The position numbers were made by a program, and so were the translations under genes. From positions 2,856,225 to 2,920,224 of the forward strand of contig OY987308.1 in the NCBI GenBank assembly GCA_963920635.1: 64,000 nucleotides of DNA, in the 5' to 3' direction. A model generated the notes under the pieces. The model had not been told where the DNA came from. It saw nothing but the letters and a program-made list of their open reading frames with translations, and did no database searches. Shown here one piece after another: positions 17,491-60,179 of the stretch (position 1 is the stretch's first letter; each line of letters starts with the position of its first letter). The DNA is from Pseudeuparius sepicola. Lineage: Eukaryota; Arthropoda; Insecta; Coleoptera; Anthribidae.

Positions 17491-17908
17491 TGAATGAATT
17501 CGCGGAAATTCGCAATGAAACTCTTCGTGATCTCCTTAATAAAATCTGAGCGGAGGTCCTACCAATTCCCCAGTTTCTCCGACAGTTTGCCCTTCTCTTT
17601 CGTCCCTCTCCTAGGGGAGGAAACATATTTTTTACCCCCGGATACGGCGTAAGTAACACGATTATCCCTTGAGACCGAGGGTTGGGAGAATTGACCGGGA
17701 CCGTTTGATTTAAAAAGAGACCTCGTATGAAAACCGCGGCCGATGGAAATTTAACAGTATATTACAATATTTAAAACAAATCATAACTCAATATAGTATA
17801 GAACCGATATATTATAGGCCCTTATTTGGCACTTCCATCCTTTGGTAACAATCACGTTGTAAAAATGACAGAGGGATGGCTCATAAAACAGTGTTGGTTG
17901 GTAAGGAT
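17491..17908. other. No recognised feature
   Basis: Contains a relatively GC-rich patch (17540-17720) with no protein motif I recognise. Confidence 0.5.
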
Positions 17909-17912
17909 AGTT

Positions 17913-17944
17913 GAAGAATGGAAGTACCAAAGGCACTAAGTGCC
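17913..17944 (+). repeat. Left TIR of the DUF7869-like transposon
   Basis: It contains the 13-bp near-palindrome GGCACTAAGTGCC. Variants recur just inside: GGGCATAAGTGCC at about 18112 and AAGGTTATAAGTAC near 18191. Confidence 0.8.
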
Positions 17945-19355
17945 TTATTCATAATTCTGAGATAATTAAGAAAACAAATTTAGAAAGCAACATTTTTTAT
18001 TTTTTCTATTATAGATATTTTAAAACTAGAAATAATAACTAGTAGAACACAAACTTAATGTTTCTATCAATAACATAAAATATTGAAGTTTATTTAGAAC
18101 TAAAACTGAAAGGGCATAAGTGCCAAAATATTTTTCCTTCAAAGGTTATAAGCAAAAACCAAAATTATGTTTTAATTGCCTCACAACTTAAAGGTTATAA
18201 GTACTAATTAAAGGTGAGATGAGCTGCTGCTTGGGATTCATGGACGATAGGGATTTTTTTTGTTATCAGTAATCTTATTCTCAGGGGGCAAAAGTTTTAT
18301 TTCCCCAGATTTTATATCTTCAATACTTTTTCCTTTTTTCAATATATTGGTTGCTTTCTTCTAACTCGGAGAAAGATTCTTTTATATGAAGTACTGTTGG
18401 ATTTTTATGATCAATCTTTATTCTTACTGCCTTACTGATGTTTAAGGCTTTAGTATTGAGAAATGTGTCAGCAACTTCTTTTATATTCCAAAATCCATTT
18501 ACAGACATGTCAACAACTTCAAATGGCGGATCATTTTGCGGAAGTTATTACATCCTGTAAATCATTTGGCACCATTGCCTTCATAACACGCTTTCTTTTT
18601 TCGATGAGAGCGAAGTCTCTGTCACAAGCCATAAAATTGTGACCACTTATTAGAAAGTTATGCTCTATTGTCTCAAAAACTTCATGAAGAGCAAGGAAAA
18701 CTAAAACAAATATTACCATTCTGTTCTTGTTCTGCCCCGCACAGTTGTCACTCCACAGTTGCAAATGTTTTTTTTTGTGACACCAGAATTTAAAAGTTTG
18801 AGGAGGATAGATGCTACCTCATTACCTTTACGGCCACTAACACCTTCATGCCACATACACATAAAAGCATGGTTAGAGTCCGACAAATGTATCCCCAGGT
18901 TATAACAAGATAGTTGAGACAAATAAAACATATCTGAATGTGCCAACATAGGAACAAATAAAACTTGTTGGAGATCAAACAAAATGCAGCATTTGTCACT
19001 ACCAGGAAGTTGCGAATTTGCGGTTTGATTCTTCATATATTCCAGACTTTGTTGCACTTTTCGGTGGTGAAGTTCGAGTTGTTGTTTCGCACTGCAGCCA
19101 GCACTAGAAGTTTGCTTTGCCTCACAATTTAACCTATCGCAGGTATGGCACGTATCGACTCTAGGACGATGAAAGCTTAGATTCGGGAAATCCTTCTTAA
19201 ACACACCTCTATAAAACTTATAAGTTACAGGAGATTCTTTGTTTTTCGCCAAAAATGCTTTATAAAGTCGATGAATATTTAAATCAGGACTGAGATATTG
19301 CTTATCTGACTTCGCACGTGAATAGTGCGAAGCATCTCTAGGAAAGGAGTTTATA

Positions 19356-20963
19356 CACTCACCGGCACGAAAAACGGAGCACTTACAATTTTTATTTAAA
19401 AAATGTGAAATTTTAATACTTTGCGATGGTTTATTATTATAATAAGTTAAACGCAAACAACAACATGTTTTAAGTAATTTCTAATAACAATTGGGCGCTT
19501 TTTTTTAAATAAAAACTTTTGTTACAATTTAAAAAATTAGAACGATAAACCCACATTGGTGTTGTGGCAAAATGTCCTTAAATGAATCAAAACTTAAACG
19601 ATTTTTGAGCAAAAACTAATGAGGAGCATTTTTAATAACGGGTATTACCCCCGCGAGCTCGAATGATTGCATGCATTCTCCGTGGCATGCCTAAAATCAA
19701 ATGGCGAATGTCCTCTTGAGGAATAAGGTCCCATTCCTCTAAAAGAGCTTGTTTCAACTGATTTATGGTTAAAGGAGCAGGAACACGACTTCGCATTCTT
19801 CGCCCAAGCATGTCCCAAACATGTTCAATCGGGTTCGCATCTGGACTTAACGCTGGCCACTCCAAAACAGGAATGTTTACATCATTTAAATACTGTTGAG
19901 TGATTCTTGCGGTATGAGGTCTGGCATTATCATGCATCAGAAGAAAGTTATTTCCAATAAAATCAACATACGGGACAACAAAATCTTGGAGAATTTCATC
20001 AATGTACCTGGCAGCAGTTAAGGAGCCTCTTGGAACGATGTACAACTCAGTGTGTGCCTCCAGAGAAATTCCAGCCCACACCATTACTGAACCTCCTTGG
20101 TATCCTACTCTAGGACTGAAGGTACATTCTGCAAAACGCTCTTGTGGTCTTCGCCATACTCTCTCGCGACCATCTGGAGATCGCAGGCTAAACCTGGACT
20201 CATCAGTAAATAAAATTCGCCCCCAATCATTTTCACCCCAGTGCTCATGATTTCTGGCAAACCGAAGTCGCGCAACACGATGACGCCTAAGAAGCTCTGG
20301 ACCTGTTGCAGGTCTACGACTGGTAAGATTGGCTTCTCCAAGTCTTCGTCTAACTGTACGTTCGCTTACATTGGTATTCCGAACATGATGAAGTCTATTT
20401 CTGATTTCTACAGCTGTAGCACGACGATCTCGTAGACTTTGCAAGAGGATGAAGCGATCATCATGAGCGTTAGTTTTTCGTTGGGGACCAGTTCCAGGTC
20501 GTCTGGTGTAAGCTCTAGTTTCCAAAAAACGTGTATAAATACGGTGCACAGTGCTATTGGATACGACATATTGTTGGGCAACATATCGCTCAGTTCTTCC
20601 GTCTTGAAGCAACGCAACAATAGCAGCCGCTGTTTCAGGATTAACAGCCATATTTTTACCTTAAATAAACGCAGTACAGCTTTGAACTGTTTCACTTCTT
20701 TAAACTCAGACTTGTCAAAACAATAAAAACAAAAGAAAAGTCATGGCCAACTAAGACTTGTGTACTTTTTAATTTTTGGAAATTTTTATTCAAAACAGTC
20801 TAGTCTTGCTTTTCAAATAAACGTTTAATTGTTGTTAGATATTACTTAAAACATGTTGTTGTTTGCTTTTAACTTATTATAATAATAAACCATTGCAAAG
20901 TATTAAAATTTTACATTTTTTAAATAAAAATTATAAGTGCTCCGTTTTTCGTGCCGGTGAGTG
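19356..20963. mobile_element. Intact Tc1-type transposon nested in the DUF7869-like transposon
   Basis: The ends are CACTCACCGGCACGAAAAAC and its inverse, flanked by TA (19354-19355 and 20964-20965). The inverted repeats are about 137 bp (19356-19492 and 20827-20963) with only a few differences. Deleting the element with one TA rejoins the host gene in frame (DRQLIHQH + INSFPRDASHYS), which proves the boundaries. The element is 1608 bp and holds one intact transposase gene. Confidence 0.95.
19632..20651 (-). CDS. Tc1-type (DD34E) transposase, intact
   Basis: 339 residues, complete from ATG to TAA, and a typical length for Tc1 transposases. An N-terminal paired-like HTH region (residues 1-110, with GTGPQRKT linking the two subdomains) should bind the TIRs. 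The catalytic domain has Asp150 (ILFTDESRFS), Asp241 (MHDNARPHTA) and Glu276 (NPIEHVWD). The 34 residues between the last two give the DD34E signature. It would cut the element out and insert it at TA dinucleotides in the nucleus. The single long frame, with no stop or shift, lies centrally between matched TIRs, so the element could be autonomous. The start at 20651 fits the family N-terminus. Smaller open frames on either strand here are shadows. Confidence 0.95.
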   Translation of the reverse strand: MAVNPETAAAIVALLQDGRTERYVAQQYVVSNSTVHRIYTRFLETRAYTRRPGTGPQRKTNAHDDRFILLQSLRDRRATAVEIRNRLHHVRNTNVSERTVRRRLGEANLTSRRPATGPELLRRHRVARLRFARNHEHWGENDWGRILFTDESRFSLRSPDGRERVWRRPQERFAECTFSPRVGYQGGSVMVWAGISLEAHTELYIVPRGSLTAARYIDEILQDFVVPYVDFIGNNFLLMHDNARPHTARITQQYLNDVNIPVLEWPALSPDANPIEHVWDMLGRRMRSRVPAPLTINQLKQALLEEWDLIPQEDIRHLILGMPRRMHAIIRARGGNTRY

Positions 20964-21344
20964 TATGTTGGTGGATGAGTTGGCGGTCGTTTTCCGTGAA
21001 CTTGCTTGGCTTATTGTTAGAACGTCTATCAGTAAATGTGGTATCTCCCATTTTTTTCTTATTTATTAAACCAACCAAACGTTTCTGAGTGACATCAAAA
21101 ACATTCATAAATGTCTTTCTACATACACGCACAAAATTTCCATCTTGATCTGGAAGTGTGTAGGATATGGAAATTTGCGTTTTGCTATCGGCGGCAGTTT
21201 CATAATTTCCACTGTCACTAAATTTATTAGGCACATCAAGTATGTCCCTTGCGTTTTGTAGTTTTCAGCATAAAATCTCTCAAAAAGTTGAAGCTTTCGT
21301 TCGTACGTTATTTTTTTGCATTCAAAATAACACTTACACGATTT

Positions 21345-21446
21345 CTGAAAGAGATATGCAAATATTTAGGTGTAAATCAATAAAATACTTTTACTTTTAC
21401 ACTACCACTACCTATTAAGCTACCGCCATAACCTAAAATTTCTTAC
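21345..21446 (-). other. Predicted intron of the DUF7869-like gene
   Basis: The donor GTAAGA follows a codon for Glu at 21447, and the acceptor TCTCTTTCAG ends at 21345. Splicing keeps phase 0 and joins the basic N-terminal exon to the CKCYFECKK cluster. An intron argues that this is a DNA transposon and not a processed copy. Confidence 0.65.
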
Positions 21447-21806
21447 CTCTTGATTAGGTGGATTTTTCGGACGAATTTCTCTTTTCTTCCTATTAACGTA
21501 TCCCTTCCCAGCATTCTTTTTCGTTCGCTGCTGTTCTATAAACCTTCCTTTACTCTTTTCTTGCACATCTTCCATGATTAAACTGCAATTTGTTGCCCAA
21601 TAAACGTTAAAAAACAAAGAAGCACGCTAACCTGACTTTGGCACTTATACCCTTTCAAAATAAAACCTTCCAGGACATAGTTCTGAGCACCATCTATTTT
21701 TAAATTACTAAAGCTTAGAAATAAAACTACACTTATAACTTTTGTGGGTACATTGGCGATGGCACTTAAAACCTTTTTAAGCAAATATCTACAAAACTTA
21801 GATTTT

Positions 21807-21838
21807 GGCACTTAGTGCCTTTGGTACTTCCACTCTTC
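21807..21838 (-). repeat. Right TIR of the DUF7869-like transposon
   Basis: Inverted match of 17913-17944 (31 of 32 positions), followed directly by AGTT. Related internal motifs on this side are TGGCACTTATACCC near 21639 and GATGGCACTTAAAACC near 21759. Confidence 0.8.
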
Positions 21839-21842
21839 AGTT

Positions 21843-28956: not shown

Positions 28957-30410
28957 CAGGGTGAGTTTTTTTGGTTGCCCACTATGGGGATCTCGGAAAC
29001 TAGCAGAGCTAGAACAAAGGTTAAATGTGGAAGGAATTGCAGTTTTGAATGCTCCATCTAATGCCCCTTTTGGATTTCTAAAAAAGTTCACGGCTCACTA
29101 GATATTTTGAAAAAAGTGATTTTTTGCTATTTCTTCAGATCTCTGTAGCTCCGTTATTTCTGATTATACAAAAAAACTGTAGAGACAAAAATTGTAGGTA
29201 AATTTGGGCTTAATAAGATAATCTAATCTAATTTTTTATGTTGTTCGTGATTTTTGAGATATGACATAAACTTTTGTTTTTTTAAATGTAAATCATAGTT
29301 GGCTGTGGCCTTATAAAATCGGCCATTTTTTGAGCTTTCCAAAGATATAATACTCGGCATAGTTATTACAAAAAATACAAGAGCTATGGCTAATTTTCTT
29401 TTTTTTTTAATTTTCACATAGTCAGCCATGGGATATTTTCATAATTACGTTCTATTTTATAATTAGACATACTTAAAACTTTCTAATATTTTGTTTTTAG
29501 CTGGTAACAAAATGTAAGAAAAAAAAATTAAAAAACTCAAATTCAAATTATCACTATTTTAAAAGGTCACCTTTTAAAATAAAAAAGGTGTTCAAACAAT
29601 CCACCATTATTATTTATGCAAATATTGCATCTTTTTAAAGCTGAATTTGTCGCCTTTCTTAGAGAGCGCCTGTCAATACTGGCAGCTGCTAATTTAACAA
29701 TTGTCTCATACTTTATTTTGTACTGTTCCCCACAAAAAGAAATCCAAAACAGACAAATCGGGAGATCGGGACTGCCAGGAAATAGGTCTATTTCTTCATA
29801 TCCAACTATTTGGATAGAGCTGATCTAGGTAATTTCTTACGGGCAAGTAATTATGTGGTGGAGCTCCATCCTGATAATTTTTGTTACATTTTGTTACATA
29901 TTGTCACCAGCTAAAAATAAAATATTTGAAAGTTTGAAGTATGTCTTATTATACAATAGAACGTAATTATGAAAATATTCCATGGCTGACTATGTAAAAA
30001 TTAAAAAAAAATTAGCCATAGCTCTTTTATTTTTTGTAATAACTATGCCGATTATTATATATTAGGAGAGCTCAAAAAATGGCCGATTTGATAACGCCAC
30101 ATCCAACTATGATTTGCATTTAAAAAAAATACAATTTTATGTCATATCTCAAAAATCACAAACAACATAAAAAATTGGATAAGATTATCTTATTAAGCCC
30201 AAAATTATCTACAATTTTTGTCTCTACAGTTTTTCTGTAAAATCAGAAATAACGGAGCTACAGAGATCTGAAGAAATAGCAAAAAAACACTTTTTTCATA
30301 ATATCTAGTGAGCCATGAACAAAACTGCAATTCTTTTCCCATTTAACCTTTGTTCTAGCTCTGCTAGTTTCCGAGTTCCCCATAGTGGGCATCGAAACAA
30401 ACTCACCCTG
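28957..30410. mobile_element. Family A element, copy 2 (1454 bp), inserted in the Penelope-like remnant
   Basis: CAGGGTGAGTTTTTTTGG... to ...AAACTCACCCTG, with TA at 28955-28956 and 30411-30412. It interrupts the GIY-YIG coding remnant, which continues on the other side. Confidence 0.85.
29580..29880 (-). pseudogene. Mariner transposase C-terminal remnant (family A, copy 2)
   Basis: Same C-terminal block as copy 1 (..LDFFLWGT.., ending NNGGLFEHLF), with a deletion of about 27 bp near 29682 relative to other copies. Confidence 0.7.
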
Positions 30411-35500: not shown

Positions 35501-36966
35501 CAGGGTGACTTTTTTTCGATGCCCACTATGGGGATCTCGGAAACTAGCAGAGCTAGAACAAAGGTTAAATGGGGAAAGAATTGCAGTTTTGAATGCTCCA
35601 TCTAATGCCCCTTTTGGATTTTTAAAAAAGTTCACGGCTCACTAGGTATTTTGAAAAGAGTGATTTTTTTGCTATATGTTCAGATCTCTGTAGCTCCGTT
35701 ATTTCTGATTATACAGAAAAACTGTAGAGACAAAAATTGTAGATAATTTTGGGCTTAATAAGATAATCTTATCCAATTTTTTATGTCGTTTGTGATTTTT
35801 GAGATATGACATAAACTTTTGTTTTTTAAATGTAAATCATAGTCGGCCTTATAAAATCGGCCATTTTTCAAGCTTTCCAAAGATATAATACTCAGCACAG
35901 TTATTACAAAAAATAAAAGAGCTATGGCTAATTTTCTTTTTTTTTTTTAATTTTTACATAGTCAACCATGGAATATTTTCATAATTACGTTCTATTGTAT
36001 ACTAAGTCATACTACCGAAAATTATCATGATGGAGCTCCGACACATACTTATTTGCCCGTAAGAAATTACCTAGATCAGCTCTATCCAAATAGTTGGATA
36101 GGGAGAAATAGACCTATTTCCTGGCAGTCCCGATCCCCCGATTTGTGTGTTTTGGATTTCTTTTTGTGGGGAACAGTACAAAATAAAGTATGAGACAATT
36201 GTTAAATTAAGAGCAGCTGTTTTAGAAGCAATTGCCAGTATCGACAGGCGCTCTCTAAGAAAGGCGACAAATTCAGTTTTAAAAAGATGCAACATTTGCA
36301 TAAATAATAATGGTGGATTGTTTGAACACCTTTTTTATTTTAAAAGGTGACCTTTTAAAATAATAATAGTTTGAATTCGAGTTTTTTAATTTTTGTTTTA
36401 TTTTCTTACATTTTGTTACCAGCTAAAAAGAAAATATTAGAAAGTTGTAAGTATGTCTAATTATAAAATAGAACGTAATTATGAAAATATTCCATGGCTG
36501 ACTATGTGAAAATTTAAAAAAAAATCAGAAAATTAGCCATAGCTCTTTTATTTTTTGTAATGACTATGCCAAGTATTATATCTTTGGAAAGCTCAAGTAA
36601 TGTCCGATTTTATAAGGCCACAGCCAACTATGATTTACATTTAAAAAACACAAGTTTATGTCATATCTCAAAAATCGCAAACAACATAAAAAATTGGATC
36701 AGCTTATCTTATTAAGCCCAAAATTATCTACAATTTTTGTCTCTACAGTTTTTCTGTATAATCAGAAATAACGGAGCTACAGAGATCTGATGAAATAGCA
36801 AAAAATAACTCTTTTAAAATATCTAGTGAGCCGTGAACTTTTTAAAAATCCAAAAGGGGCATTAGATTGAGCATTCAAAACTGCAATTCTTTCCCCATTT
36901 AACCTGTGTTCTAGCTCTGCTAGTTTCCGAGATCCCCATAGTGGGCATCGAAAAAAAGTCACCCTG
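35501..36966. mobile_element. Family A element, copy 3 (1466 bp), inside R5
   Basis: CAGGGTGACTTTTTTTCGATGCCC and inverse, with TA at 35499-35500 and 36967-36968. The R5 paralogue (33099-33131) shows the uninterrupted target. Its transposase remnant is on the opposite strand from the other copies. Confidence 0.85.
36020..36345 (+). pseudogene. Mariner (DD41D) transposase C-terminal remnant, best-preserved copy
   Basis: One frame runs HDGAPTHTYLPVRNYLDQLY through NSWIGRN and SRSPDLCVLDFFLWGTVQNKV before a stop. From the Asp in HDGAP to the Asp in VLD there are 41 intervening residues, so the parental element was of DD41D type. A second frame continues to NNGGLFEHLF. The N-terminal two-thirds is deleted. 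Confidence 0.8.
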
Positions 36967-44622: not shown

Positions 44623-46156
44623 CAGGGTGAATTTTTTTCGATGCCCACTATTGGGGATCTCGGAAACTAGCAGAGCTAGAACAAAGGTTAAATGGGGAAA
44701 GAATTGCAATTTTGAATGCCCAATCTAATGCCCCTTTTGGATTTTTGAAAAAGTTCATGGCTCACTAGATATTTTGAAAAGAGTGATTTTTTGCTATTTC
44801 ATCAGATCTCTGTAGCTCCGTTATTTCTGATTATACAGAAAAACTGTAGAGACAAAAATTGTAGATAATTTTGGGCGTAATGAGATAATCTAACCCAATT
44901 TTTTTATGATGTTTGTGATTTTTGAGATATGACATAAACTTGTATTTTTTTTAAATGTAAATCATAGTTGGCTGTGGCCTTATAAAATCGGCCATTTTTT
45001 GAGCTTTCCAAAGATATAATACTCGGCATAGTTATTATAAAAAAATAAAAGAGCTATGGCTAATTTTCTCATTTTTTTTTAATTTTCACTTTGTCAGCCA
45101 TGGAATATTTTCATAACTGCGTTCTATTTTATAATTAGACTCAAACTTTCTTATATTTTGTTTTTAGCTGGTAACAAAATGTAACAAAATAAAACAAAAA
45201 TTAAAAAAGTCAAATTCAAATTATTATTATTTTAAAAGGTCGCCTTTTAAAATAAAAAAGGTATTCAAACAATCCATCATTATTATTTTTATGCAAATAT
45301 CGCATCTTTTTAAAACTGAATTTGTCGCCTTTCTTAGAGAGCGCCTGTCAATACTGGCAATTGCTTCTAAAACAGTTGCTCTTAATTCAACAATTGTATC
45401 ATACTTTATTTTGTACCGTTCCCCACAAAAATAAATCCAAAACAGACAAATCGTGGGATCGGGGCTGCCAGGAAATAGGTCTATTTCTCCCTGTCCAACT
45501 ATTTGGATAGAGCTGATCTAGGTAATTTCTTACGGGCAAATAATTATTTGGTGGAGCTCCATCATGATAATTTTTGTTTTATTTTGTTACATTTTGTTAC
45601 CAGCTAAAAATAAAATATTTGAAAGTTTGAAGTATGTCTTATTATAAAATAGAACGTAATTATGAAAATATGCCATGGGTGACTATGTGAAAATTAAAAA
45701 AAAAAAAACAGAAAATTAGCTATAGCTATTTTATTTTTTATAATAACTATGCCGAGTATTATATTTTTGGAAAGCTCAAAAAAATGGCTGATTTGATAAA
45801 GCCACAGCCAACTATGATTTACATTTAAAAAAATACGTTATACTTTATGTTATATCTCGAAAATCACAAACAACATAAAAAATTTGATAAGATTATCTTA
45901 TTAAGCCCCAAATTGTCTACAATTTTTGTCTCTACAGTTTTTCTGTACAATCAGAAATAACGGAGCTACAGAGATCTGATGAAATAGCAAAAATCACTCT
46001 TTTCAAAATACCTAGTGAGCCATGAACTTTTTTAAAAATCCAAAAGGGGCATTAGATGGAGCATTCAAAACTGCAATTCTTTCCCCATTTAACCTTTGTT
46101 CTAGCTCTGCTAGTTTCCGAGATCCCCATAGTGGGCATCGAAAAAAACTCACCCTG
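44623..46156. mobile_element. Family A element, copy 4 (1534 bp)
   Basis: CAGGGTGAATTTTTTTCGATGCCC and inverse. TA on the right (46157-46158); TG on the left where TA is expected. The transposase remnant is on the minus strand (45255-45575). Confidence 0.85.
45255..45575 (-). pseudogene. Mariner transposase C-terminal remnant (family A, copy 4)
   Basis: Same fragment as in other copies, with frameshifts; ends in the GG.FE-type tail. No first catalytic Asp. Confidence 0.7.
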
Positions 46157-48073: not shown

Positions 48074-49590
48074 CACTGTGTCCCGGATAAGAATGAACAG
48101 CATGGGGATATTGCAAACGGTGAGAGATAGGGCAACGGTTAAATGGGGAAAAAGTTGCGCAATTTTGAGGTCAATAAAATGGCACAAACAGATTTCTAAT
48201 ATCTTTTTTCGTTTTTGAGTTATTTTGAAAAAAGTAAAATTTTGCGTTTTCGATTTTATTTTTTTCTGAAGTTGTTGTCACAGATAGAAAAAAAAGAAAA
48301 ACACTTTCTCATGGCACTTTTTAACGGGCTTTAAGACGGCGTTTTTAGATTTGTTCTACAACGTTTCGTTTTTGAGAAACCATCTTCAACTTAATTTTTT
48401 TAAATACGGACCTGGATTTTTTTTTGCAGATTTTGAAAGCACTTTTCATTGCAAATACCATGATGTATGACACGAAATATTTTTAAATTGTTTTGAGACA
48501 ATTATTCTGAAAATACCCTTTTTTCCATTCATTTTTCTCTAATGCGGCCCTGTATTTAATAATAAGAAGTCTAAATATTAATCAGTATTGAAAACAATTT
48601 AACTTACAGTTTATTTTTACTTCGAAAACTTAATATTTTTAAATTTTACGGCCCTGCGTCTGGTAAAGTGTTTTCCTCTGTTGTTGTACAGCAAATAGTG
48701 TCGCATTGTGTTTTGGAGTAAATTCTTCGCTTTTCCTAATTGCGGGAAGAAAGCTTTAAGCCAACGTAATCAATAACTTTTGCCATTTATTAATTGCAAA
48801 AATACATTCGTTCGGCCTCTACACTATTCCTGTGACACAAGATATAACATGCTGACATGTTAAATTTGTCGTCATTTGAAAAAGCACCCTCCATTTGTAA
48901 TGAAATAAATTGTTAACTAAATTATACATTGGGAGTTATGACAAATGACAAGGGATTGGTTTCGTAGTTTCAAAGCCTTCTAGGTGGAGGATTTTTATTT
49001 ATTTTTTATTATCGTATGTGCCGTCCTTTTTTTAGTTCTCCAATTGAAAGATACGTTGTAAGTTAAATTGTTGACAATATTGATTAATATTTAGACTTCT
49101 TATTATTAAATACAGGGCCGCATTAGAAAAAAATTAATGGAAAAAAGGAATTTTCAGTATAATTGTCTCAAAACATTTTAAAAATATTTCTTGTCGTACA
49201 TCATGGTATTTGCAGTGAAAAGTGCTTTCAAAATCTGCAAAAAAAATCCAGGTCCGTATTTAAAAAAAATTAAGTTGAAGATGGTTTCTCAACAACGAAA
49301 CGTTGTAGAAGAAATCTAAAAACTCCATCTTAAGGCCCGTTAAAAAGTGCCATAAGAAAGTGCTTTTCTTTTTTCTCTATCTGTGATAGCAACTTCAGAA
49401 AAAAATAAAATCGAAAACGCAAAATTTTACTTTTTTCAAAATAACTCAAAAACGAAAAAAGATATTAGAAATCTGTTTGTGCCGTTTTATTGACCTCGAA
49501 ATTGCGCAACTTTTTTCCCATTTAACCGTTGCCCTATCTCTCACCGTTTGCAATATCCCCATGCTGTTCATTCTTATCCGGGACACAGTG
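48074..49590. mobile_element. Family J long hairpin, CACTGTGTCCCGGATAAG ends
   Basis: 1517 bp. Arms 48074-48610 and 49054-49590 (about 537 bp each) are inverted, with TA at 48072-48073 and 49591-49592. The 443-bp loop has no recognised coding sequence. Part of an arm resembles 60290-60420 (AAATACGGACCTGGATTTTT). Confidence 0.85.
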
Positions 49591-58130: not shown

Positions 58131-58579
58131 CGTTGTGTAGTCGCCTTTGTCAACGTTGAAAACATACAGGGTGAGTTTTTTTCGATGCCCACTATGGGGA
58201 TCTCGGAAACTAGCAGAGCTAGAACAAAGGTTAAATGGGGAGAGAATTGCAGTTTTGAATGCTCAATCTAATGCCCCTTTTGGATTTTTAAAAAAGTTCA
58301 CGGCTCACTAGATATTTTGAAAAGGGTGATTTTTTGCTATTTCATCAGATTTCTGTAGCTCCGTTATTTCTGATTGTACAGAAAAACTGTAGACACAAAA
58401 ATTGTAGATAATTTTGGGCTTAATAAGACAATCTAATCCATTTTTTTATGTTGTTTGTTATTTTTGAGATATGACATAAAGTTGTGTTTTTTTTAATGTA
58501 AATCATAGTTGGCATTTTTTGAGCTTTCCAAAGATATAATACTCGGCATAGTTATTATAAAAAATAAAAGAGCTATGGC

Positions 58580-59113
58580 GAGTGATGTAATAGATACATT
58601 TTTTCGGTATCTAGATACAGATACTGTCTGGCAGATGTATCTAGATACAGATACCGATACATTTTTCCAAAGTATCTGGGTACAAATACAGATACGTTAA
58701 AGAAGTATCTAGATACTTCCAGATACATTCAGATACCTAGTATCAGTTAATTAAGAAAATTTCTGACCTCATAAGGCAATCAATATACTTACCTACTGAG
58801 ATATTTATGAAACAAGTGTGTGTGTAGGTAAAGTAGAACTTTTTAGACGAATGTGAAGTTTAGATTGTCACTAATTGAAACGAGTTGTGGGTTAGTAGTT
58901 TACCGTGTACGTCACTCCAATGTGAGCACTGAGAAGGTACTTTATGTACGGTATTTAAAAGAAAACACTGAATCATACTCCATTTTATTATTTGTATTGT
59001 TTATTTTTTAACATTAGCATCATTTCGAAGTTTTCATCGCCGAGTCTGTTACGCCTTGGAGTTAAAATTTGCCCTCCTGTACTAAAGAGGCGCTCGACTG
59101 GGGCAGATGATAC
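58580..59113. mobile_element. 3' end of a hAT element
   Basis: The left side has a GAGTGATGTAATAGATAC tip (hAT tips usually start CAG) and repeated GTATCTAGATAC palindromes (58607-58725), likely subterminal binding motifs. The right side is the transposase C-terminus. The other hAT end is missing and the right junction coincides with loss of TIR sequence, so it is an insertion followed by deletion. Confidence 0.7.
58988..59113 (-). pseudogene. hAT transposase C-terminal (hATC dimerisation) fragment
   Basis: The open 41 codons read [20 protein letters not shown] and [18 protein letters not shown], then a stop. This is the highly conserved end of hAT transposases (S.P.ERLFS..G and L....E.L..L), which mediates dimerisation. 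The catalytic core is absent. The frame is undamaged over this stretch, suggesting fairly recent origin. Confidence 0.85.
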
Positions 59114-59284
59114 ATAGTCAGCCATGGAATATTTTCATAATTACGTTTTATTTTATAATTAGACACACTTCAAACTTTCTAATATTTTGTTTTTAGCTGG
59201 TAACAGAATGTATCAAAATAAAACAAAAATTAAAAACTCAAATTCAAATTATTATTATTTCAAAAGGTCACCTTTTAAAATAAA

Positions 59285-59590
59285 AAAGGTGTTCAAACAA
59301 TCCACCATTATTATTTATGCAAATATTGCATATTTTTAAAACTGAATTTGTCGCCTTTCTTAGAGAGCGCTTGTCAATACTGGCAATTGCTTCTAAAACA
59401 GCTGCTCTTAATTCAGCTCTTGTCTCATACTTTATTTTGTACTGTTCCCCACAAAAAGAAATCCAAAACAGACAAATCGGGGATCGGGGCTGCAAGGAAA
59501 TAGGTCTATTTCCAACTATTTGGATAGAGCTGATCTAGGTAATTTCTTACGGGCAAATAATTATGTGGTGGAGCTCCATCATGATAATTT
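59285..59590 (-). pseudogene. Mariner transposase C-terminal remnant (family A, copy 5)
   Basis: A 75-codon open frame (59495..59268) covers ..RSLRKATNSVLK.. to NNGGLFEHLFYFKR, in the true C-terminal frame. The preceding block with the second and third catalytic residues lies in a shifted frame. Confidence 0.75.
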
Positions 59591-60179
59591 TTGTTTTATT
59601 TTGTTACATTTTGTTACCAGCTAAAAATAAAATATTTGAAAGTTTGAAGTATGTCTAATTATAAAACAGAACGTAATTATGAAAATATTCCATGGCTGAC
59701 TATGTGAAAATTAAAAAAAAAATCAGAAAATTAGCCATATATCTTTTATTTTTTATAATAACTATGCCGAGTATTATATCGATTATATCTTTGGAAAGCT
59801 CAGAAAATGGCCGATTTTATAAGGCCACATACAACTATGATTTACATTAAAAAAAAAACACAAGTTTATGTCATATCTCAAAAATCATAAACAACATCAA
59901 AAATTGGATGATTATCTTATTAAGCCCAAAATTATCTACAATTTTTGTCTCTACAGTTTTTTCTGTATAATCAGAAATAACGGAGCTACAGAGATCTGAT
60001 GAAATAGCAAAAAATCACTTTTTCCAAAATATCTAGTGAGCCATGAACTTTTTTAAAATTCCAAAAGGGGCATTCAATTAGCATTCAAAACGGCAATTCT
60101 TTCCCCATTTAACCTTCGTTCTAGCTCTTCTAGTTTCCGAGATCCATATAGTGGGCATAGAAAAAAATCTCACCCTGTA

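What the first reader, a model, noticed from the sequence alone, without database searches (positions are those of the whole stretch)
17913..21838. Unnamed insect Cys-rich protein family appears to be the transposase of a TIR transposon with 4-bp target duplication
Directly seen: 32-bp TIRs (31 of 32 identical), an AGTT duplication at both outer edges, and one intron-containing gene filling the interior. The gene matches in style a family (DUF7869-like) that is annotated in many insect genomes as uncharacterised. FDLQQ, SDNCAGQNKN and FALIEKRK provide two Asp and one Glu in DDE-like order (48 residues between the last two). If right, many uncharacterised insect genes of this family are transposases or domesticated ones, and the superfamily (Sola-like or new) needs defining.
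Basis: partly seen in the sequence, partly recalled or inferred. Interest (0 to 1): 0.88.

Follow-up and report, generated by a model that had tools for sequence, protein, structure and literature searches.

The report
DUF7869 is a jumping-gene transposase
This stretch is a dead jumping gene, split by a second jumping gene that landed inside it, and its near-identical copies and distant relatives in the same genome show that a widespread insect protein family of unknown function (DUF7869) is very likely the cut-and-paste enzyme that moves such elements.

Summary
The core of the finding holds; its picture of the interior does not. TIRs (31/32) and AGTT duplication are exact. The interior is not one gene: 19356-20963 is a nested, young Tc1 element, and the DUF7869 frame around it is split and frame-shifted. 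The genome holds 7 more full-length copies; 8 of 8 have both TIRs and a perfect 4-bp duplication (AATT x6, AGTT x2). All 17 genomic TIR sites found belong to these copies or to one single-ended copy. Four divergent DUF7869 groups have TIRs of their own; over five groups 16 of 19 copies have perfect duplications, all A-N-N-T, and one has an empty paralogous site. Another group (2 copies) shows no TIR. The protein is predicted to have an RNase H fold with an Asp-Asp-48-Glu triad invariant in 74 of 74 aligned relatives. DUF7869 is very likely a DDE transposase. Whether this is Repbase's Sola (4-bp AWWT sites) or an undescribed superfamily could not be tested without Sola sequences.

The parts
17909..17912 (.). 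left target-site duplication AGTT
17913..17944 (+). left terminal inverted repeat, 32 bp
   Evidence: same ends in 7 further copies
18109..18208 (+). left subterminal motif sites (AAAGGnnATAAGTGCCAAA-like, starts 18109 and 18190; a weaker one at 18141), possible transposase binding sites (inferred)
18320..19353 (-). 3' part of the DUF7869 transposase gene, frame-shifted; holds FDLQQ, SDNCAGQNKN and FALIEKRK
19354..19355 (.). TA target of the nested Tc1 element, left copy
19356..20963 (-). nested Tc1-type element (transposase frame 19632-20660 minus, D-34-E spacing counted from the frame; about 165-bp inverted ends)
20964..20965 (.). TA target of the nested Tc1 element, right copy
20966..21344 (-). 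upstream part of the second exon of the DUF7869 transposase gene (frame-shifted near 21264)
   Evidence: exon limits inferred from relatives
21345..21446 (-). inferred intron (GT...AG)
   Evidence: sequence, placed by comparison with P0010
21447..21575 (-). inferred first exon, starting MEDVQEKSK
21637..21776 (-). right subterminal motif sites (starts 21637 and 21758; a weaker one at 21725), facing inward
21807..21838 (-). right terminal inverted repeat, 32 bp
21839..21842 (.). right target-site duplication AGTT

Best explanation
The element is a dead copy of a DNA transposon whose single gene, a DUF7869 protein, is very likely its own cut-and-paste DDE transposase, and the copy is split by a later Tc1 insertion. 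Shown by sequence: matched TIRs, 4-bp ANNT duplications, several near-identical copies at different sites, an empty site for a sister group, an invariant D-D-(48)-E set, and the nested Tc1. Predicted: an RNase H fold of the retroviral integrase and mariner type, with the triad on strand 1, at the end of strand 4 and in the following C-terminal helix. Inferred, not shown: the DUF7869 protein binds the TIRs and the inward-facing subterminal repeats, cuts the element out with metal ions held by the triad, and joins the 3' ends to a target cut with a 4-bp stagger at A-N-N-T, which repair turns into the duplication. Groups B, C and D, with copies 99.7-100% identical and open frames of 644-691 codons, would be the recently moving ones.
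Against: No activity was measured. Group E (2 copies, 838-codon frame) shows no TIR and lies beside reverse-transcriptase frames. Group F has TIRs but no TSD in 2 of 2. One group D copy (L065) has unequal flanks. Foldseek by itself gave no hit better than E 0.027, and the catalytic domain folded alone from 13 sequences was poor (pLDDT 63.5). All 8 family A copies are frame-disrupted, so family A is not shown to be self-moving. The model is of a relative, not of the window protein, and side-chain distances of the triad could not be measured. The five further groups were chosen because they looked like recent multi-copy groups; most of the 150 scored DUF7869 places were not examined.
Confidence: 0.93

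Rival explanations
1. The element works as described but belongs to the already named Sola superfamily of Repbase (most likely Sola2 or Sola1), so that only the link from Pfam DUF7869 to Sola would be new.
For: Sola2 elements have 4-bp AT-rich duplications, AWWT (PMC3627910, passages); here 12 of the 16 perfect duplications are AWWT. Sola is counted among the DDD/E superfamilies (PMC9587614, passages). DUF7869 lineage E reaches Hydra and a fish; Hydra is a host from which I recall Sola being described.
Against: 4 of 16 duplications are not AWWT (AGTT x2, ACAT, AACT). Sola transposases are recalled as DDD; here the third residue is Glu. One classification puts Sola with the RNases H of retroelements (clade E) and not with mariner and retroviral integrases (PMC3985635, passages), which are the closest folds here; this is weak evidence. 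No Sola sequence was available to compare.
Confidence: 0.5
2. The TIRs are those of an unrelated small element or chance pair, and the DUF7869 gene is host or passenger DNA.
For: The window copy alone, split by another element, could have been read so.
Against: All 16 paired genomic occurrences of the TIR bound a DUF7869 gene, with no short version among the 17 sites; three further groups with different TIRs carry DUF7869 and perfect TSDs in 8 of 9 copies, and a fourth has TIRs.
Confidence: 0.02
3. DUF7869 genes are mainly domesticated host genes that keep a transposase fold.
For: They are annotated as uncharacterised genes in many insects; group E has no TIR here.
Against: At least 150 places in one genome, groups of near-identical copies, and frame-broken copies are what transposons look like. 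Individual domesticated members are not excluded.
Confidence: 0.04

Closest known systems
Sola superfamily (Sola2)
   Same: 4-bp AT-rich target duplication, TIRs, one large transposase gene; AWWT in 12 of 16 here
   Different: sites here are ANNT with 4 of 16 outside AWWT; Glu as third catalytic residue (Sola recalled as DDD); sequence relation untested
Tc1/mariner (Mos1) and retroviral integrases
   Same: predicted RNase H fold of the catalytic domain and D-D-E order
   Different: of the six window frames scanned, the Tc1-type domain DDE_3 (PF13358) is found only in the nested element; 4-bp ANNT instead of TA; 48 residues between D and E; CxxC...H ahead of the first Asp
hAT, P, MuDR, Kolobok, Dada group with the C/DxxH signature (PMC9587614, passages)
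   Same: a D-x-x-H occurs between the second Asp and the Glu in groups B, C, D and E
   Different: it lies four residues before the Glu, and relatives of the window's group A have Phe in place of His; for Kolobok the target duplication (TTAA) differs
KDZ (Kyakuja, Dileera, Zisupton)
   Same: large transposase; Zisupton has TIRs
   Different: 7-bp (Kyakuja) or 8-bp (Zisupton) duplications (PMC12730594, passages), against 4 bp here

Membership tests
TIR (DDE) cut-and-paste DNA transposon | matched TIRs at both ends of multiple copies | tested here: met
   family A 8 of 8 full copies, B 4 of 4, C 2 of 2, D 3 of 3, F 2 of 2; group E 0 of 2
TIR (DDE) cut-and-paste DNA transposon | fixed-length target-site duplication and an empty site | tested here: met
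   perfect 4-bp TSD in 16 of 19 TIR-bounded copies; empty site for the group B copy L062 with a single target copy; none tested for the window's own group
TIR (DDE) cut-and-paste DNA transposon | RNase H-fold transposase with D-D-E/D triad | tested here: met
   fold by prediction only; triad in 74 of 74 and 346 of 360
TIR (DDE) cut-and-paste DNA transposon | catalytic excision and integration | not testable with these tools
   needs a bench assay
Pfam DUF7869 (PF25273) | score over the curated cut-off | tested here: met
   window frame 50.3 bits against 26; 74 of 74 aligned relatives match at E <= 0.5; groups B-F 5 of 5 over the cut-off
Sola | 4-bp AWWT target duplication (as given for Sola2 in PMC3627910) | tested here: inconclusive
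   length fits in 16 of 19; motif fits in 12 of 16
Sola | sequence similarity to Sola transposases | not testable with these tools
   no Sola sequence held; source papers PMC2727372 and PMC3093488 not held
Sola | DDD catalytic triad (recalled from the original description, not from a call) | tested here: inconclusive
   Glu at the third position in 74 of 74, but the Sola definition is recalled only
KDZ | 8-bp (Zisupton) or 7-bp (Kyakuja) duplication | tested here: not met
   4 bp in 16 of 19; source PMC12730594
Kolobok (and piggyBac) | TTAA duplication | tested here: not met
   0 of 16 are TTAA; definition from PMC9587614
Tc1/mariner (for the DUF7869 element) | TA duplication (recalled) and DDE_3-type transposase | tested here: not met
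   TSD is 4 bp; DDE_3 matches only the nested element among six window frames
Tc1/mariner (for the nested element 19356-20963) | TA duplication (recalled), HTH_Tnp_Tc3_2 and DDE_3 domains | tested here: met
hAT/P/MuDR/Kolobok/Dada group | C/DxxH between second Asp and Glu | tested here: inconclusive
   present in groups B-E, Phe instead of His in A and F

The most novel reading that the evidence does not exclude
DUF7869 defines an undescribed superfamily of animal DDE transposons (D-D-48-E, CxxC...H ahead of the first Asp, A-N-N-T target duplication) with at least six divergent groups in one insect genome and relatives in insects, a spider, Hydra and a fish, several groups recently or still moving.
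Probability: 0.4. Interest if true: 0.75.

Novelty: new variant of a known kind. Interest (0 to 1): 0.6.

Why it matters
A Pfam domain of unknown function that is spread through insect gene lists (at least 150 places in this one genome) would get a function. Many genes now called 'uncharacterized protein LOC...' should then be masked as transposons, gene-family expansion counts in insects would change, and real domesticated members could be sought. Groups with near-identical copies and long open frames (B, C, D) offer testable, possibly active transposons.

Tried and rejected
Rejected: 'one intron-containing gene' (nested Tc1); chance TIR pair or MITE; KDZ, Kolobok, piggyBac and Tc1 membership by target duplication.

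Full report
Observation. The TIRs at 17913-17944 and 21807-21838 are 31 of 32 identical and are flanked by AGTT on both sides. A pattern from the first 24 bases (3 mismatches allowed) finds just these two sites in the window and none in 100 shuffles. Inside both ends lie inward-facing repeats of an AAAGGnnATAAGTGCCAAA-like motif. The scan motif was taken from the element; of six sites with at most 3 mismatches in the whole window, four lie inside the ends (18109, 18190, 21637, 21758), one overlaps the right TIR (21804) and one lies just outside the left TSD (17825). They are candidate transposase binding sites (inference).

The interior is two things. 19356-20963 is a Tc1-type element: TA on each side, about 165-bp inverted ends, and a 342-codon frame with HTH_Tnp_Tc3_2 and DDE_3 domains. 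Of 369 candidate places in the genome 40 were scored; one was the window itself and 39 matched this part only, at 99-100% identity. It splits the DUF7869 gene, whose frame 18531-18818 scores 50.3 bits against a cut-off of 26. The gene is also frame-shifted, and the copy lacks about 70 bp near 18234 that the seven others have. The window copy is dead.

Copies in the same genome. With the left part as query, seven more full-length copies appear (L010-L016, 2393-2430 bp). All eight, window included, have both TIRs and a perfect 4-bp duplication: AATT six times, AGTT twice. One further locus (L018) has a single end. A genome-wide pattern search with up to 3 mismatches finds the TIR at 17 sites: 16 are the paired ends of these eight copies and one is L018; the reversed control finds 0. 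The TIR and the gene therefore belong together, and no short element with this TIR was found. The copies are 98.8-99.8% identical over aligned bases, and all eight are frame-disrupted against relative P0001; in five (L011-L014, L016) the frame changes at a poly-A run, whose length varies among copies, just before the second catalytic Asp, and in the window the frames also change there.

Other DUF7869 groups. The Pfam model finds 535 candidates in the genome; 150 were scored and all 150 exceed the cut-off; 14 control genomes gave 0. I fetched members of five further groups, chosen because their scores or open-frame lengths suggested recent copies: B (4 of 5 places), C (2 of 3), D (3 of 3), E (2 of at least 3), F (2 of 2). 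B: 3934 bp, three copies 99.95-100% identical to the fourth, own TIRs, duplications ATAT, ATTT, ATAT, ACAT, 4 of 4. C: own TIRs, duplications ATAT and AACT, 2 of 2. D: own TIRs, ATAT and ATAT, 2 of 3; L065 has unequal flanks. F: TIRs but no duplication, 0 of 2. E: no TIR, beside reverse-transcriptase frames. In all, 16 of 19 TIR-bounded copies have perfect 4-bp duplications and all 16 read A-N-N-T; in eight fetched loci A..T is 11% of 4-mers, and two random 4-mers agree in 0.66%. Next to the group B copy in L062 an inverted copy of the same host repeat lacks the element and has a single target, AAAT against ACAT, in an otherwise similar but not identical stretch of 139 aligned positions: an empty paralogous site.

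Protein. Relatives of the window protein (261 at E <= 0.001, 120 listed) are named, where named, from beetles, aphids and another hemipteran, Lepidoptera, a cockroach and a spider; lineage E reaches Hydra vulgaris and Astyanax mexicanus. In 74 aligned relatives the two Asp and the Glu are invariant, with 48 residues between the last two in 73 of 74. Across six groups (A stood for by its relatives P0010 and P0001), 20-39% identical to one another in this region, CxxC, His, D, E (of WHE), D, D and E are identical in 7 of 7 proteins. In the 360 listed relatives, fragments included, the triad reads DDE in 346. The model of P0010 from Onthophagus taurus has mean pLDDT 88.7 and the order strand (D306), strand, strand, helix, strand (D383), helix, strand, helix (E432), which is the RNase H order. 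All 50 structures shown by VIA-align, out of the 1000 that Foldseek ranked highest, are retroviral integrases or mariner-type transposases; the core matches at 2.6-3.4 A over 119-150 residues, while the full-length Mos1 rows have the highest Z (up to 9.7) with large overall rmsd, 13.5-14.4. Foldseek alone is weak. In two rows the alignment starts at model residue 300 against integrase residues 60 (FIV) and 58 (Rous-associated virus); if ungapped this puts D306 on the first catalytic Asp, residues 66 and 64 (recalled numbers).

Mechanism. From this the DUF7869 protein is very likely the transposase of its own element, working by DDE chemistry with a 4-bp staggered target cut at ANNT. Excision, TIR binding and strand transfer are inferred; none was measured.

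Known or new. KDZ (7-8 bp, PMC12730594), Kolobok and piggyBac (TTAA, PMC9587614) and Tc1 (TA, recalled) do not fit. Sola2 has 4-bp AWWT sites (PMC3627910); 12 of 16 duplications fit and 4 do not. Sola is recalled as DDD, while here the third residue is Glu, and one classification puts Sola in another RNase H clade than mariner and the integrases (PMC3985635). No Sola sequence could be compared, so Sola membership stays open at about even odds. No paper in the library names DUF7869. I therefore call it a new variant of a known kind: DDE/TIR transposons with a transposase domain that Pfam still lists as unknown.

Noticed in passing
window 29001-30370, 44668-46115, 48119-49548, with related pieces at 1-1154, 35541-36925 and 58207-60135: About 1.4-kb elements with inverted arms of roughly 440-550 bp and ends like AAAGGTTAAATGGGGAAAG; one family is about 88-93% identical among copies, and 48119-49548 is a separate family with 94.5% identical arms. 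They look like long-TIR or foldback elements.
   Followed up: partly
window 17820-17847, minus strand: GGATGGAAGTGCCAAATAAGG just outside the left TSD resembles the element's own TIR and subterminal motif; possibly the remnant of an older end or an accidental likeness.
   Followed up: no
L010-L016 and the window near 18770: A poly-A run whose length varies among family A copies lies in the frame just before the second catalytic Asp. It may only be decay, or a slippage site as known from some bacterial insertion sequences (recalled).
   Followed up: no
L067 and L068: Group E DUF7869 frames of 838 codons lie beside reverse-transcriptase-like frames whose pieces are in swapped order in the two loci, and no TIR is seen.
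   Followed up: partly
relatives P0147 and P0214: Some DUF7869 proteins carry misleading or chimeric annotation, e.g. an RNA polymerase subunit name for P0147 and an extra Pfam domain in P0214.
   Followed up: no
window 19356-20963: The nested Tc1 family has at least 39 other copies at 99-100% identity and so has probably moved very recently.
   Followed up: partly
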